From Bacteroidaceae bacterium (lineage in GTDB: Bacteria; Bacteroidota; Bacteroidia; Bacteroidales; Bacteroidaceae): a DNA stretch of 37,569 nucleotides. Position 1 is the stretch's first letter, and every line of letters starts with the position of its first letter. Below, piece by piece: positions 23,548 to 31,926 of the stretch. The notes under the pieces are model-generated. The model did not search any database, was not told the DNA's origin, and saw only the letters and a list, made by a program, of their open reading frames with translations. The DNA lies in contig JABUTZ010000003.1 of the NCBI GenBank assembly GCA_021443415.1, forward strand, positions 1 to 37,569, written 5' to 3'. The translations under genes and the position numbers were made by a program.

Positions 23548-23943
23548 ATGCTTTACGTCAGAGTATCAAAACGCTACAACAAAATCAAGCACATCTACAT
23601 GTACGGAGCATCGCTCATCAGCGAGAGACAGGTGACAATGGACGAACTCGTGGAGCGAATCAACGCACGATGCACCGTCACCAAAAGTGACATCATGGCG
23701 GTGCTCGCCGCATTCCAGGAGCAGGCCATCTACGCCCTCCGAAACGCACAGGGAGTGTCGCTCGGCGAACTCGGCACACTCTACATCCGTGCAAATACAC
23801 GCACAATGGAAACCGCGGCGGACTTCACCATCAACGATGTCCTGGGGCTCCTCGTAGGCTTCCGCCCGAGACAGTCGTTCACAAGGAAACTACAGAAAGG
23901 ACAGGAGGGCATCTCGTTCAAGTGCGCCAAAATCCAAGACTGA
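23548..23943 (+). CDS. HU/IHF-like DNA-binding protein (first of pair)
   Basis: The protein has 131 residues from the ATG at 23548. A basic N-terminal stretch (MLYVRVSKRYNKIKHIYMYG) precedes an HU-type helical and beta-arm region: TMDELVERINARCTVTKSDI, then AVLAAFQEQAIYALRNAQGV and SLGELGTLYI, the last being the turn before the arm in HU relatives. It resembles the Bacteroidota HU-HIG proteins, which are longer than E. coli HU (90). A longer in-frame reading from 22702 crosses the opposite gene and is rejected. It probably bends or packages DNA. It forms a two-gene unit with the next gene, 40 nt apart, ended by a strong terminator. Confidence 0.8.
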   Translation: MLYVRVSKRYNKIKHIYMYGASLISERQVTMDELVERINARCTVTKSDIMAVLAAFQEQAIYALRNAQGVSLGELGTLYIRANTRTMETAADFTINDVLGLLVGFRPRQSFTRKLQKGQEGISFKCAKIQD

Positions 23944-23983
23944 AACCAGGTCAAACCGTTAAACCATCAAAAACCTTACAACT

Positions 23984-24376
23984 ATGATTAAAATCAAGAA
24001 GATCCAGAACAACAACCCTAAGACACCACAGTTCAATGGATGGAGTGGCAGAGTGATCAACAGCGACAGCCTCAGCCTCGACACCGTAGCAGGCCTCTGC
24101 AGTCTCAACAACACCGTCACAAGGGCAGACACCATCGCAGTGCTCGACGCACTCTTCGTGGAGTGCATACACGCACTCAAAAACGGCAACTCCGTGTCTC
24201 TCGGAGACCTCGGCTCACTACACCTCACGGTCTCGGGACCGCTCGCCGCAACGCTTGAGTCGTGGAACGTGAAGGACAACATCGAGAAAATCAATGTGCG
24301 ATACACACCGAGCCCCGCACTCAAACGGGCCGTGAGCCTCACGGCCGAGGGAGTGAATGTGAGGGTGGTGGACTGA
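23984..24376 (+). CDS. HU/IHF-like DNA-binding protein (second of pair)
   Basis: This 130-residue protein is a divergent paralogue of the preceding one: same length, same central pattern (VTRADTIAVLDALFVECIHA followed by GNSVSLGDLGSLHL) and a similar C-terminal half ending in a short basic-acidic tail. The N-terminus MIKIKKIQNNN is again basic and is followed by a Trp-containing insert (QFNGWSG) missing from the first copy. Sequence identity between the two is clearly low outside the core, so they may heterodimerise or have separate targets. Family membership is by pattern only. Location in the cell is expected to be nucleoid-associated. Confidence 0.78.
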   Translation: MIKIKKIQNNNPKTPQFNGWSGRVINSDSLSLDTVAGLCSLNNTVTRADTIAVLDALFVECIHALKNGNSVSLGDLGSLHLTVSGPLAATLESWNVKDNIEKINVRYTPSPALKRAVSLTAEGVNVRVVD

Positions 24377-24414: not shown

Positions 24415-24445
24415 GGGCGGCCCTTTCGGGGGTCGCCCTTTTTTT
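24415..24445 (+). terminator. Intrinsic terminator of HU-like pair
   Basis: A GC-rich hairpin (GGGCGGCCC, loop TTTC, GGGGGTCGCCC, one bulged position) is followed by seven T residues at 24439-24445. It lies 38 nt after the second HU-like stop. Confidence 0.85.
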
Positions 24446-24626: not shown

Positions 24627-24634
24627 TAACTTTG
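24627..24634 (+). promoter_or_regulatory. -7 promoter element of small ORF-GNAT module
   Basis: TAACTTTG followed by CACACG lies 31 nt upstream of the 58-residue ORF. It is the same -7 variant as the other right-part promoters. Confidence 0.55.
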
Positions 24635-24665
24635 CACACGGAAAACAACACCACAACATCTTACC

Positions 24666-24842
24666 ATGGCACTCGAAATAAGACCTATCCCCATACTCGA
24701 GGGAGATGCCGCAGAACGATTCATAAAGCAAGCAGAGGAAAACGCAAGAAACCCCAAAAAGTCACAACTGCACTTACTCACTGCAGAACAATTCGAAAGC
24801 ATCAAACTAAAACGGAAAATTCACAACTTACATGAGTCATAA
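24666..24842 (+). CDS. Small 58-residue protein, possible antitoxin partner of GNAT
   Basis: This ORF is too short for ordinary ORF cut-offs. It begins MALEIRPIPILEGDAAERFI and ends in a charged, helix-prone tail (FESIKLKRKIHNLHES). It is placed right behind a -7 element and overlaps the GNAT gene by 11 nt, so the two are translationally coupled. The order (small protein first, GNAT second) matches GNAT-type toxin-antitoxin loci such as TacAT/AtaRT, but the sequence does not look like their DUF1778 ribbon-helix-helix antitoxins. It resembles small proteins preceding GNAT genes in other Bacteroidales, from memory. Base and codon composition match its neighbours. The antitoxin role is inference. 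Confidence 0.7.
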   Translation: MALEIRPIPILEGDAAERFIKQAEENARNPKKSQLHLLTAEQFESIKLKRKIHNLHES

Positions 24843-25422
24843 CATCTACGACTGTGACATGTATATGGTAGAGTCGGAACAAGACTTGGCCAATTTTTCG
24901 TGTGGCAGCAAAGACCTCGACGAGTTCTTTGCGCTCGACGCCTTTTTCTACGACAGACAAATGCTCGGTAAAACTTATTACTTCGAAACAAAAGACACCT
25001 CTCAGGTTATAGCGGCATTCACCGTCGCAAACGACAGCATCAAGGCATCACTCATCTCCAAGTCCACACGAAACAGGCTCAACCGCAAAATACCAAACAC
25101 AAAGCGAACACGCAGTTACCCGGCAGTACTTATCGGACGACTTGGAGTGTCGGGCAACGAAAAAGGCACAGGCGTAGGAAGCCAGGTCATAGACTTCATA
25201 AAGAAATGGTTCTCACAACACAACAACAAAAGCGGATGTAGGTATGTCGTGGTGGACGCATACAACCTGCCACAAGTACTTCAATTCTACGAAAAAAACG
25301 AATTCCAATTCCTCTATGACAATGAACAAGAAGAAAAAGACACATTCGGACTAAAACGCGATGAAAAACTCAATTCAAGAATGATGTACTTCGACCTGAT
25401 CAACTATTCGGATATTAACTGA
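24832..25422 (+). CDS. GNAT-family N-acetyltransferase
   Basis: This 196-residue cytosolic acyl-CoA-dependent acetyltransferase shows motif A as VLIGRLGVSGNEKGTGVGSQ (about residues 99-118), giving the acetyl-CoA pyrophosphate loop K-G-T-G-V-G. Motif B is at about residues 144-157 (LPQVLQFYEKNEFQFL) with the tyrosine expected to act as general acid. The N-terminal half (SGSKDLDEFF-like acidic helix, DRQMLGKTYYF) resembles the TacT/AtaT branch, which acetylates aminoacyl-tRNA, rather than small RimI-type proteins, but this is a by-eye judgement. It overlaps the preceding 58-residue ORF by 11 nt. No terminator is visible after it. The alternative is an ordinary metabolic or protein acetyltransferase. 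Confidence 0.85.
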   Translation: MSHNIYDCDMYMVESEQDLANFSCGSKDLDEFFALDAFFYDRQMLGKTYYFETKDTSQVIAAFTVANDSIKASLISKSTRNRLNRKIPNTKRTRSYPAVLIGRLGVSGNEKGTGVGSQVIDFIKKWFSQHNNKSGCRYVVVDAYNLPQVLQFYEKNEFQFLYDNEQEEKDTFGLKRDEKLNSRMMYFDLINYSDIN

Positions 25423-25477: not shown

Positions 25478-25485
25478 TAACTTTG
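25478..25485 (+). promoter_or_regulatory. -7 promoter element of Ig-like protein gene
   Basis: TAACTTTG followed by CAGC lies 140 nt upstream of the ATG at 25626. The long A/C-rich leader between them has no clear hairpin. Confidence 0.5.
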
Positions 25486-28014: not shown

Positions 28015-28662
28015 ATGCAAACCTGTATCTCAGACACAAAGACGCAAACTCAAGCGCCAAAACAACACAACTGCATGGGCATCAACACTTTATGCCACCA
28101 TGCAGGACTCAATGCCATGCCCATCACGGAGGAACAGACCAAACAATGGTACGTCCTGCGCGACCTCAAACGACCCAACGCACTACTGCCGGCATACAAA
28201 ATGCTCGGCAACCTCAACATCGAGGTCTTCACACCCATGCGCGAACAACTCTCGCGAAAGCGTGAAACATTGCAGCGCACCATGCAGCCCGTCCTCCGCG
28301 ACCTGCTCTTCGCACACACCACACGCAGCGCGCTCGACGGCATCATCCACAACACACCCACCCTCCAATACCGCTTCCTCAAGGGGCACCGGCAGAAACC
28401 CATGACTGTACCCGAACGCGAGATGACAGACTTCATCACCGCCGTCGCCTGCAGCCACACCACACACTTCCTGATGCCCGACGAAATCAACCCCGCAATG
28501 TACGGCAGGCGGGTGCGCATCATAGGAGGGACACTCGACGGACAAGAGGGCATACTCAAAACCGTGCGAGGCTCACGCCGACGGCACCTCCTCGTACAGC
28601 TCGAGGGAATACTCGCCGCCGACATCGAAATCACAGACTGCCAATACACCATCATCGAATAA
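28015..28662 (+). CDS. UpxY-like NusG-family transcription antiterminator
   Basis: This protein of up to 215 residues probably binds RNA polymerase early in the capsule operon and prevents premature termination, as UpxY proteins do in Bacteroides. The NGN domain begins KQWYVLRDLKRPNALLPAYK (about residue 43) and passes through EVFTPMRE; the KOW motif GRRVRIIGGTLDGQEGIL is at about 163-180. The start is uncertain: ATG codons at 28015, 28075 and 28117 are in frame, and the last puts MPITEEQTKQWYVLR close to the usual N-terminus, so the first 34 residues may be leader RNA instead. It is the first gene of the locus, 36 nt before the export lipoprotein. No upxZ partner follows. Confidence 0.82.
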   Translation: MQTCISDTKTQTQAPKQHNCMGINTLCHHAGLNAMPITEEQTKQWYVLRDLKRPNALLPAYKMLGNLNIEVFTPMREQLSRKRETLQRTMQPVLRDLLFAHTTRSALDGIIHNTPTLQYRFLKGHRQKPMTVPEREMTDFITAVACSHTTHFLMPDEINPAMYGRRVRIIGGTLDGQEGILKTVRGSRRRHLLVQLEGILAADIEITDCQYTIIE

Positions 28663-28698
28663 CACACAACACCAACACCCGAAAACAATACAAACACA

Positions 28699-29511
28699 AT
28701 GAATATCAAACGACTGATCCCAACAATCGCCATAGCAGCAATGCTCGCAGCCTGCGGCACACCAAAGGACATAGCCTACTTCCAGGACTCCGACCAGTAC
28801 AACGACATCGTCGTCAAAGCGCACGAAATCACAGTCAAGCGAGGAGACAAACTCTCCATCATCATCAACAGCAAAGACCCAGCGCTCGCCAGCATGTTCA
28901 ACATGCCCATCGTCACATACCGAGTAGGCTCCACACAGCAGGCGTCAACACTCGGCAGCTCCAGCCAGCAAATGGCCCTCTACTGCGTTGACAGCAACGG
29001 AGACATCGACTTCCCCGTCATAGGCAAAATAAAAGTCGTGGACAAAAGCCGAGAGGAGATAGCAAACATCGTCAAGGAAAGGCTCGTCAGCGAGGAACTC
29101 ATCAAAGACCCCGTCGTGACCGTCGAGTTCGAAAACCTCTACTTCTCCGTACTCGGAGAGGTAAAAAACCCCGGACGATTCGACATCAAGCACGACCGAG
29201 TCACACTCCTCGACGCCATCAGCATGGCCGGAGACCTCACCATCAACGGCATGCGACACAACGTCACCGTACTCCGCGAGGAGGGAGACCACCACAAACT
29301 CTACAAGGTGGACCTCACATCAGCCAACGACCTCTACAACTCGCCCGTCTTCTACCTGCAGCAGAAAGACATCGTGTACGCCGAACCCAACGACGCGCGG
29401 AAGCGACAGGCCACCGTCAACGGAAACAACGTACGCAGCACATCATTCTGGATATCAGTCGCATCGCTACTCACCAGCGTCGCAATTCTCGTCACAAACG
29501 CAGTCAAATAA
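28699..29511 (+). CDS. Wza-like polysaccharide export lipoprotein
   Basis: This 270-residue outer-membrane polysaccharide exporter has a lipoprotein signal MNIKRLIPTIAIAAMLAAC (lipobox LAAC). The poly-export domain follows (about residues 30-130: EITVKRGDKLSIIINSKDP onward, with VDSNGDIDFPVIGKIKV), then an SLBB domain (about 150-230: FSVLGEVKNPGRFDI, VTLLDAISMAGDLTINGMR). A hydrophobic segment near the C-terminus (FWISVASLLTSVAILVTNAV) is of the kind seen in Bacteroidota exporters, which are shorter than E. coli Wza (379). It is three bases upstream of the kinase gene, so they form one translational unit. Confidence 0.92.
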   Translation: MNIKRLIPTIAIAAMLAACGTPKDIAYFQDSDQYNDIVVKAHEITVKRGDKLSIIINSKDPALASMFNMPIVTYRVGSTQQASTLGSSSQQMALYCVDSNGDIDFPVIGKIKVVDKSREEIANIVKERLVSEELIKDPVVTVEFENLYFSVLGEVKNPGRFDIKHDRVTLLDAISMAGDLTINGMRHNVTVLREEGDHHKLYKVDLTSANDLYNSPVFYLQQKDIVYAEPNDARKRQATVNGNNVRSTSFWISVASLLTSVAILVTNAVK

Positions 29512-29514
29512 ACC

Positions 29515-31926
29515 ATGGCAAACAACAATAACAACTACAACAAAAAGAGCGAAAACGACCTCCTGCAACTCCAGGACCTCATCGTCTCATGCATGAGCCA
29601 CTGGAGGTGGTTCATACTCTCCATACTGCTCTGCGTCGGAGCCGCCGTCTTCTACGTCCTCCGCACCGAACCCAAATACACACGCACAGCATCACTACTC
29701 ATCAAGGAGAGCAACGACAACGGCATACAGTCACAGCTCAGCACATTCTCCGACATGGGAATGTTCAGCACAAACACCAACGTGCACAACGAACTCCGCT
29801 CCATACAGTCCATATCAGTCATGGCAGAGGTGGTCAACCGCATGAAACTCTACATGGACTACAAGACCGACAACAAATTCCACAAAAAGTCGCTCTACGG
29901 AGTCAACCTACCCATCAACGCCGAAATCGTCGGACCATCCGAGAACGACGGAGTGACATGGGACATGGACGTTGACCCCAACGGCTCCGTCATCATCACA
30001 CGGCTCAAGCACAAGAGCAAATGGGTGGGGGAAAAGTCCGACGAATACAAAGGAACCATAGGAGACAGCATCACAACACCCATCGGCAAAATCATCGTAA
30101 CAAAAACCGCCGCATTCTCAACACTCACAGAGCCTACGACGTTCTACATCAAGCGTCTCGGACTCGTGTCATGCATCGAGAGCTACCTCAAACGTCTCAA
30201 AGCCACATTCCTCGACAAGGAGCAGACCACAATCATCGACCTCGAATACACCGACGTCTCAATACAGCGCGCAGAGGACTTCCTCAACACCGTCATAGCC
30301 GTTTACAACGAAAACTGGGTCAAGGCCAAAAACCAAATCGCCGTCAACACATCACAATTCATCGACGACCGCCTGAAAATCATCGAACAGGAACTCGGAA
30401 ACGTTGACAACGACATATCATCATACAAGAGCGAGCACAACATACCGAACGTCGAGGCGGCTGCCAACATGTACATGACAAACGCCAATGAGGCAAACGC
30501 ACGCGTCATGGACCTCAACAACCAACTCTACATGGCGCGGTACGTGCGAAGCTACATGAGCAACGAGGCGAACAACCACCAACTGCTGCCCGTCAACTCA
30601 GGCATCAACAGCCAGTTCATCGAACAGCAAATCTCCGAATACAACAACAAACTGCTCCAGCGCAACACTCTCGTCGCCAACAGCAGCGAGAGAAACCCGC
30701 TCGTCGCCGACATCGACAACTCACTGCGAAACCTGAGAATCGCCATCATCACATCCATCGACAACCAAATCAACTCACTCAACAACCAGATAGCAACCTT
30801 CCGCACCGAAGAGCGAACAAGCAACGCACGCATCACATCAAACCCACAGCAGGCCAAATACCTCATCAGCGTCGAGAGGCAGCAGAAGGTCAAGGAGTCT
30901 CTCTACCTCTTCCTCCTGCAGAAACGCGAGGAGAACGAACTCTCGCAAGCCTTCTCCGCATACAACACACAGGTCATCAACCCGCCACACGGACTGCTCA
31001 ACCCAACCGCACCGAAGAAGTTGAAAATCTTCCTCGCCTCAATCCTGCTCGGCATAATCATACCCATCGGCATCCTCTACCTCAAAGAGAACCTCAACAC
31101 CAAAATACGCGGCAAGAAGGACCTCGAGAGCTGCCCCATACCGTTCATCGGAGAGATACCGAGCTTCACTCTCAAGAAACGGCGCGTCCACAGACGGACA
31201 ACCATCGGAAACAACACCGTCGTCGTCGGAAGCGGACGGCGAGACATCATCAACGAGGCATTCCGCGTGCTGCGCTCAAACCTCGAGTTCATGAGCGAGA
31301 ACGGAGGCAAGTCCAACATCATAGCCATCACATCATTCAACCCGGGAAGTGGTAAATCACTCATATCACTCAACACAGCCGTCAGCCTCGCAATACGAAG
31401 CAAACGCGTGCTCCTCATCGACGGAGACCTCCGACACTCGTCAACATCAGCCTACATCAACAACCCCTCTACGGGTCTCAGCAACTACCTCAACGGCTCA
31501 ATAGCCGACTACCACGACATCATCGTCAAGGACATCGACCACGACAACCTGCACTTCCTCCCCGTGGGAACAATCCCGCCAAACCCCGCCGAACTGCTAC
31601 TCAACGACCGTCTCAAACAACTGCTCGACGCCGTACGCGAGGAATACGACTACGTCATGCTCGACTGCCCGCCAATCGAAATCGTCGCCGACACACGCAT
31701 CATCAGCAAATACGCCGACCGCACCATCTTCGTCGTCCGGGCAGGACTCTTCGAGCGAAGCATGCTACCCGAACTCGAGAACATATACAAAGAGGGCAAA
31801 TACAGCAACCTCGGACTCATTCTCAACGGCACGGCAAACGGCAACGGACGACTCGGATACTCCTACGGATACCGCTACGGATACCACTACGGCAGCTACT
31901 ACGGAGAGGAGAAAAAGAAAAAGTGA
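29515..31926 (+). CDS. Wzc-like polysaccharide co-polymerase and tyrosine autokinase
   Basis: This 803-residue inner-membrane protein controls capsule chain length and export. A Wzz-type N-terminus has TM1 at about residues 34-53. A long periplasmic coiled-coil region includes the GNVR-type segment SERNPLVADIDNSLRNLR. TM2 lies at about 503-522 (KIFLASILLGIIIPIGILYL). The cytosolic BY-kinase domain shows Walker A FNPGSGKSLIS (about 606-616), Walker A' VLLIDGDLRHSS (about 631) and Walker B VMLDCPPIE (about 713). The C-terminal Tyr cluster (about 780-797, pattern YSYGYRYGYHYGSYYG) is the autophosphorylation site. All key residues are present, so it should be active. Its stop overlaps the start of the phosphatase gene that would reverse its phosphorylation. 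Confidence 0.95.
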   Translation: MANNNNNYNKKSENDLLQLQDLIVSCMSHWRWFILSILLCVGAAVFYVLRTEPKYTRTASLLIKESNDNGIQSQLSTFSDMGMFSTNTNVHNELRSIQSISVMAEVVNRMKLYMDYKTDNKFHKKSLYGVNLPINAEIVGPSENDGVTWDMDVDPNGSVIITRLKHKSKWVGEKSDEYKGTIGDSITTPIGKIIVTKTAAFSTLTEPTTFYIKRLGLVSCIESYLKRLKATFLDKEQTTIIDLEYTDVSIQRAEDFLNTVIAVYNENWVKAKNQIAVNTSQFIDDRLKIIEQELGNVDNDISSYKSEHNIPNVEAAANMYMTNANEANARVMDLNNQLYMARYVRSYMSNEANNHQLLPVNSGINSQFIEQQISEYNNKLLQRNTLVANSSERNPLVADIDNSLRNLRIAIITSIDNQINSLNNQIATFRTEERTSNARITSNPQQAKYLISVERQQKVKESLYLFLLQKREENELSQAFSAYNTQVINPPHGLLNPTAPKKLKIFLASILLGIIIPIGILYLKENLNTKIRGKKDLESCPIPFIGEIPSFTLKKRRVHRRTTIGNNTVVVGSGRRDIINEAFRVLRSNLEFMSENGGKSNIIAITSFNPGSGKSLISLNTAVSLAIRSKRVLLIDGDLRHSSTSAYINNPSTGLSNYLNGSIADYHDIIVKDIDHDNLHFLPVGTIPPNPAELLLNDRLKQLLDAVREEYDYVMLDCPPIEIVADTRIISKYADRTIFVVRAGLFERSMLPELENIYKEGKYSNLGLILNGTANGNGRLGYSYGYRYGYHYGSYYGEEKKKK

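What the first reader, a model, noticed from the sequence alone, without database searches (positions are those of the whole stretch)
24627..25422. Coupled 58-residue ORF and GNAT acetyltransferase: possible new-type toxin-antitoxin module
A tiny ORF (24666-24842) with its own promoter overlaps the GNAT gene by 11 nt. The order and coupling match GNAT toxin-antitoxin loci, and the acetyltransferase resembles that branch by eye, but the small protein lacks the ribbon-helix-helix pattern of DUF1778 antitoxins. If real, it would be a distinct antitoxin family in Bacteroidales.
Basis: partly seen in the sequence, partly recalled or inferred. Interest (0 to 1): 0.6.

Follow-up and report, generated by a model that had tools for sequence, protein, structure and literature searches.

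The report
Small-protein-paired GNAT, probable toxin-antitoxin module
A 58-residue protein gene and an acetyltransferase gene sit together as an almost inseparable pair in many gut and environmental bacteria and their phages; the enzyme is related to toxins that stop protein synthesis, and the small partner belongs to a conserved, unnamed family that is probably its antidote, though nobody has yet shown that the enzyme is toxic.

Summary
In detail: a 58-codon ORF (24666-24842) overlaps a 196-codon GNAT gene (24832-25422) by 11 nt, with a Bacteroidota-type -7 promoter element 5' of it. The pair is real. Homologous small ORFs lie directly 5' of homologous GNATs in 161 fetched loci (Bacteroidota, Fibrobacterota, a Kiritimatiellae MAG, plasmids, phages), with shared promoter spacing and purifying selection on the small ORF. 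Searching with the small family alone, 42 of 44 examined places have this GNAT next to them. The small proteins share I-[KR]-x-x-P-x-L-x-G-x-x-A-x-x-F (P9 and F19 invariant), have no Pfam or NCBIfam match and no detectable relation to DUF1778/RHH antitoxins. By profile and fold the GNAT is nearest to TacT/AtaT/KacT toxins, including the catalytic tyrosine, but on a separate branch. Bikmetov et al. 2022 noted such 'short ORFs' before GNATs outside the 'true TA clade' and left their role open. Toxicity and neutralisation are untested. A caution: these GNATs are near neutral and the small proteins basic, the reverse of canonical TacAT. AlphaFold gave no evidence on binding. Best reading: a type II-like GNAT toxin-antitoxin with a new antitoxin family.

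The parts
24415..24438 (+). terminator-like hairpin followed by T-run, separating the module from the upstream HU-like gene
   Evidence: 10-pair stem, 8 GC pairs, TTTTTTT tail
24627..24634 (+). TAACTTTG, match to the Bacteroidota -7 promoter element TAnnTTTG, 31 nt before the small ORF start
   Evidence: sequence; same element 20-50 nt before most of 159 related small ORFs, 127 of 159 against 10 expected
24666..24842 (+). 58-residue small protein, candidate antitoxin (non-RHH family)
   Evidence: no Pfam/NCBIfam match; PHROG 16712 (unknown function) matches 19 of 26 family members
24678..24722 (+). conserved motif I5-R-P-I-P9-I-L11-E-G13-D-A-A16-E-R-F19
   Evidence: P9 and F19 100%, A16 99%, L11 96%, G13 93%, I5 91% of 119 non-redundant homologues
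24832..24842 (+). 11-nt overlap of the two reading frames (translational coupling inferred)
   Evidence: same overlap in the paralogue L023
24832..25422 (+). 196-residue GNAT acetyltransferase, candidate toxin of the TacT/AtaT superfamily branch
   Evidence: phrog_1758 acetyltransferase
25288..25290 (+). codon of Tyr153, aligned with catalytic Tyr144 of AtaT
   Evidence: alignment; invariant in 112 non-redundant GNATs
25478..25485 (+). TAACTTTG element of the next transcription unit (boundary of the module)
   Evidence: sequence

Best explanation
The locus is a two-gene toxin-antitoxin module of the GNAT kind with a new antitoxin family. The GNAT (toxin) would use acetyl-CoA and Tyr153 to acetylate an amine in the translation machinery, most likely the aminoacyl group of a charged tRNA as in TacT/AtaT, and stop growth. 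The small protein, made first from the shared promoter and coupled to the GNAT by the overlapping frames, would bind the GNAT (type II-like) and block its active site; the conserved N-terminal motif IKxxPxLxGxxAxxF is the likeliest toxin-binding part. With no recognisable DNA-binding domain, autoregulation, if any, would work differently from RHH antitoxins. Shown: the pair, its conservation and near-obligate linkage, homology and fold of the GNAT, conserved catalytic Tyr, shared promoter, distinctness from DUF1778. Inferred: toxicity, target, binding, neutralisation.
For: Linkage: 79 of 80 GNAT loci from named genomes have the small ORF directly 5' (the other is cut by the contig end), as do 24 of 27 viral loci. 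In the reverse direction, 42 of 44 examined places found with the small family alone have this GNAT or its remains next to them. Spacing -60 to +40 nt in 157 of 161 pairs, 65 overlapping. GNAT: the top 15 PDB matches of its profile are TacT/AtaT/KacT-type toxins at 1e-17 to 1e-11 while other GNATs start at 1e-4; the top 33 fold matches are all GNAT TA toxins. Tyr153 aligns with catalytic Tyr144 of AtaT and is invariant in 112. TA-like behaviour: patchy (33 of 393 genomes of the order), several copies per genome (2 in this one, 5 in G165), unrelated neighbours of the two own copies, on plasmids and phages. Distances in the two proteins co-vary (r 0.67, permuted maximum 0.08). About ten loci keep the small ORF while the GNAT is broken, and none of the family's loci shows the reverse.
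Against: No toxicity test exists. These GNATs lie outside the DUF1778-partnered clade, and PMC9177977 says GNATs outside that clade may have evolved other functions. Median GNAT pI is 6.6 (window 5.8) against 9.3 for DUF1778-partnered ones, and the small proteins are basic (median 9.65), so tRNA binding as in TacT is not obvious. AlphaFold of the two chains joined gives the motif block hardly more confidence (96) than the small protein alone (94), so it does not support docking. The broken-GNAT asymmetry is only weakly significant once gene length is allowed for, and some breaks may be assembly errors.
Confidence: 0.72

Rival explanations
1. The pair is an acetyltransferase with a small regulatory or substrate-presenting subunit, not a toxin-antitoxin. 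The basic small protein could guide the near-neutral GNAT to its substrate, or be acetylated itself, in a function such as modifying ribosomal proteins, a drug or a phage component.
For: Charge pattern reversed with respect to TacAT; branch separate from DUF1778-partnered GNATs; PMC9177977 leaves 'different physiological functions' open.
Against: Patchy, multicopy, mobile distribution and loss of the GNAT but not of the small ORF look like TA rather than a subunit; nearest relatives of solved structure are all toxins.
Confidence: 0.2
2. The small ORF is a leader or upstream ORF that only sets translation of the GNAT, and its protein sequence does not matter.
For: Tight overlap and shared promoter.
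Against: Amino-acid conservation across phyla with invariant P9 and F19, dN/dS 0.02-0.25, co-variation of protein distances.
Confidence: 0.03
3. The small protein is a very divergent ribbon-helix-helix antitoxin, so this is an ordinary GNAT-RHH pair.
For: Predicted order extended segment, helix 13-28, helix 35-56 resembles the strand-helix-helix order of RHH; a strand formed only in the dimer would not show in a monomer model.
Against: No RHH family of Pfam matches any of 26 members even at E 1; profile comparison with DUF1778 gives 0.4-2.6% probability; invariant Pro9 lies where the strand would be; no fold match in the PDB.
Confidence: 0.05

Closest known systems
GNAT-DUF1778 toxin-antitoxin (TacAT, AtaRT, KacAT, ItaRT)
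   Same: GNAT fold and catalytic Tyr, two-gene operon with the small gene first, close spacing, mobile and multicopy
   Different: antitoxin of another family, mostly 50-65 aa without detectable RHH; GNAT branch separate; charges of the two proteins reversed; toxicity untested
GNAT-DUF4065 (VcaAT, PMC9177977)
   Same: GNAT of the same superfamily with a non-DUF1778 partner
   Different: no DUF4065 domain found in the small protein; VcaT lies inside the 'true TA clade'
TA-like GNAT loci with 'short ORFs' outside the 'true TA clade' (PMC9177977, Discussion)
   Same: short ORF without DNA-binding domain preceding a TacT-related GNAT; the present locus fits this description
   Different: there the ORFs were called divergent and left undefined; whether they are the same loci could not be checked because that paper's supplement was not available here
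PHROG 16712 / phrog_1758
   Same: small family and acetyltransferase family of phage proteins that match these two proteins
   Different: PHROG 16712 has no assigned function

Membership tests
GNAT-DUF1778 type II toxin-antitoxin (TacAT) | GNAT toxin of the TacT/AtaT/KacT kind | tested here: met
   profile against PDB and fold; but a separate branch in the quick tree
GNAT-DUF1778 type II toxin-antitoxin (TacAT) | DUF1778/RHH antitoxin | tested here: not met
   conversely the small-family profile finds nothing in the DUF1778 loci
GNAT-DUF1778 type II toxin-antitoxin (TacAT) | basic toxin that binds tRNA | tested here: inconclusive
   whole-protein pI median 6.6 against 9.3; local surface charge not examined
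type II toxin-antitoxin in the broad sense | two-gene operon of small protein and toxin-like protein with mobile, patchy spread | tested here: met
type II toxin-antitoxin in the broad sense | toxin inhibits growth and antitoxin neutralises it by direct binding | not testable with these tools
   needs expression and binding experiments; AlphaFold gave no evidence either way
GNAT-DUF4065 (VcaAT) | DUF4065 antitoxin | tested here: not met
   no such match in Pfam
Arc1 (AvrRxo1 antitoxin) | sequence relation of the small family to Arc1 | tested here: inconclusive
   profile hit E 1.3 over an LTGxDAxxF-like stretch, at chance level

The most novel reading that the evidence does not exclude
A large, separate branch of GNAT toxins, controlled by a small basic protein without a DNA-binding domain whose IKxxPxLxGxxAxxF motif plugs the active site, and acting on something other than the aminoacyl-tRNAs hit by TacT. 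The motif may be a general antitoxin element, since a motif protein without a GNAT also follows a HigBA-type pair (L216).
Probability: 0.25. Interest if true: 0.75.

Novelty: new variant of a known kind. Interest (0 to 1): 0.58.

Why it matters
GNAT toxins are described with DUF1778 (RHH), Xre or DUF4065 partners (PMC2701414, PMC9177977). A 2022 survey left open whether GNATs outside the 'true TA clade', preceded by unclassified short ORFs, are toxins at all. The present family gives those ORFs, or a large part of them, a definition (motif, profile, promoter, near-obligate linkage) and a list of pairs in isolates and phages to test. If toxic, it adds a widespread module in gut Bacteroidales and their phages.

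Tried and rejected
AlphaFold of small protein and GNAT joined by the four-letter word CATG=H with the small protein alone as control: motif confidence 96 against 94, no coordinates available, so no inference on docking. Coupling analysis: top inter-protein pair small residue 8 with GNAT residue 100 (T-K against I/S-L, z 7.3), but it mostly follows the two main clades, so it is kept as a lead only. Search for an inverted-repeat operator in front of the window copy: none. HU gene used to look for an empty site: not syntenic in relatives. Arc1 similarity: chance level. Small protein of the window against viral contigs: no hit with the single sequence, solved by using alignments. A variant small protein (from L172) against plasmids: no match. 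GNAT loci L035, L036, L169 and L172 have other short upstream ORFs not detected by the profile. Careful tree did not finish; the quick tree was used.

Full report
Observation. The window holds a 58-codon ORF (24666-24842) and a 196-codon GNAT ORF (24832-25422) that overlap by 11 nt. A Bacteroidota -7 element, TAACTTTG, lies at 24627-24634. A terminator-like hairpin (24415-24438) and a further TAACTTTG (25478-25485) bound the module. The genome carries a second, diverged copy (G000:C44) with the same 11-nt overlap. The two copies have unrelated neighbours: HU-like and Big_2-domain proteins here, an AAA/DUF4143 protein next to the other.

Conservation of the pair. In the first relatives searched, nearly all close GNAT homologues are preceded by a 50-72 aa ORF beginning MAxxIKxxPxLxGxxAxxF. 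The small family was then searched alone in 393 genomes of the order: 53 places in 33 genomes. Of the 44 places whose DNA was read, 42 have the GNAT or its remains directly downstream; the other two (L215, L216) do not. Searched with the GNAT in named genomes, 79 of 80 loci have the small ORF and the last is cut by the contig end. In viral contigs 24 of 27 do, and one more (L159) has a weak match, MARPITPTPKLNVRESEAFLAMV. In all, 161 pairs were extracted (a few are the same place fetched twice): 157 within -60 to +40 nt and 65 overlapping. As a negative control, the small-family profile finds nothing in 22 loci fetched with DUF1778. The family is common in Bacteroidales and rare in a sample of the wider phylum (2 of 296 other genomes, both with the GNAT).

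The small protein is a real protein. Close pairs of homologues give dN/dS 0.02-0.25. Across 119 non-redundant members P9 and F19 are invariant, A16 99%, L11 96%, G13 93%, I5 91%; the C-terminal half is variable in sequence. It has no Pfam or NCBIfam family; PHROG 16712, of unknown function, matches 19 of 26 members. Profile-profile comparison with DUF1778 antitoxins from the same order gives 0.4% and 2.6% probability. The model shows an extended start and two helices, with no significant PDB fold match.

The GNAT. Its profile finds TacT/AtaT/KacT-type toxins first (15 sequences, 1e-17 to 1e-11), other GNATs only from 1e-4. The predicted fold (mean pLDDT 89.8) matches 33 chains of GNAT TA toxins before anything else. 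Tyr153 aligns with AtaT Tyr144, the residue changed in the AtaT Y144F structures, and is invariant in 112 GNATs. In a quick tree the DUF1778-partnered GNATs of the order form one clade (support 98), apart from the small-partnered ones.

Function. Patchy presence, multiple copies, plasmid and phage carriage, linked evolution of the two proteins (r 0.67), and about ten loci with broken GNAT but intact small ORF against none of the reverse fit a toxin-antitoxin module. The greater length of the GNAT makes that asymmetry only suggestive (roughly 0.78 to the 11th power, about 0.07, my own estimate), and assembly errors are possible. Against a simple copy of TacAT stands the charge pattern: GNAT pI median 6.6 against 9.3 for DUF1778-partnered ones, small protein 9.65. 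The joined AlphaFold model gives no evidence of binding beyond the small protein alone. I therefore put about 0.72 on toxin-antitoxin function, with aminoacyl-tRNA as the likeliest but unproven target.

Known literature. Makarova et al. 2009 list GNAT-RHH and GNAT-Xre (PMC2701414). Bikmetov et al. 2022 add GNAT-DUF4065 and state that short ORFs before GNATs outside the 'true TA clade' lack predictable DNA-binding domains and may be unidentified antitoxins or serve other functions (PMC9177977). No paper found here defines this small family; only open-licence PubMed Central papers were searchable. The result is a new variant of a known kind, not a categorically new system.

Noticed in passing
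L216:1321-2285 (+): A HigBA-type pair (Gp49/DUF891 toxin and HTH_3 protein) is followed by a small protein with the same motif (DRPTPVLRGEDAVRF) and no GNAT: possibly the motif serves other toxins or forms a third component.
   Followed up: partly
L215:2237-2437 (+): Another small-family-like protein (HKPIPMLYGSEGKRF) without a GNAT nearby; its neighbour has no Pfam match.
   Followed up: partly
L169:3778-3975 and L172:480-695 (+): Distant GNATs on viral contigs are preceded by short ORFs with a related but different motif (L172: SFGGLHLSGEDARKF), perhaps an outlying branch of the same antitoxin family.
   Followed up: partly
L033:2357-2608 (+): In a faecal phage scaffold (MT836071, flagged UNVERIFIED) the small ORF runs into the GNAT start in one frame and the GNAT is broken further on.
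   Followed up: no
window 28015-31926 (+): The module lies a few kb upstream of a NusG-like antiterminator gene and what look like capsule export genes.
   Followed up: no
window 23602-24376 (+): Two adjacent HU-like proteins precede the module, and a similar pair lies at G000:C35.
   Followed up: no
small residue 8 and GNAT residue 100 in homologues: Strong correlated change (T with K, I/S/V with L) between the two proteins; residue 100 is in the strand before the acetyl-CoA loop, but the signal may be clade-driven.
   Followed up: partly
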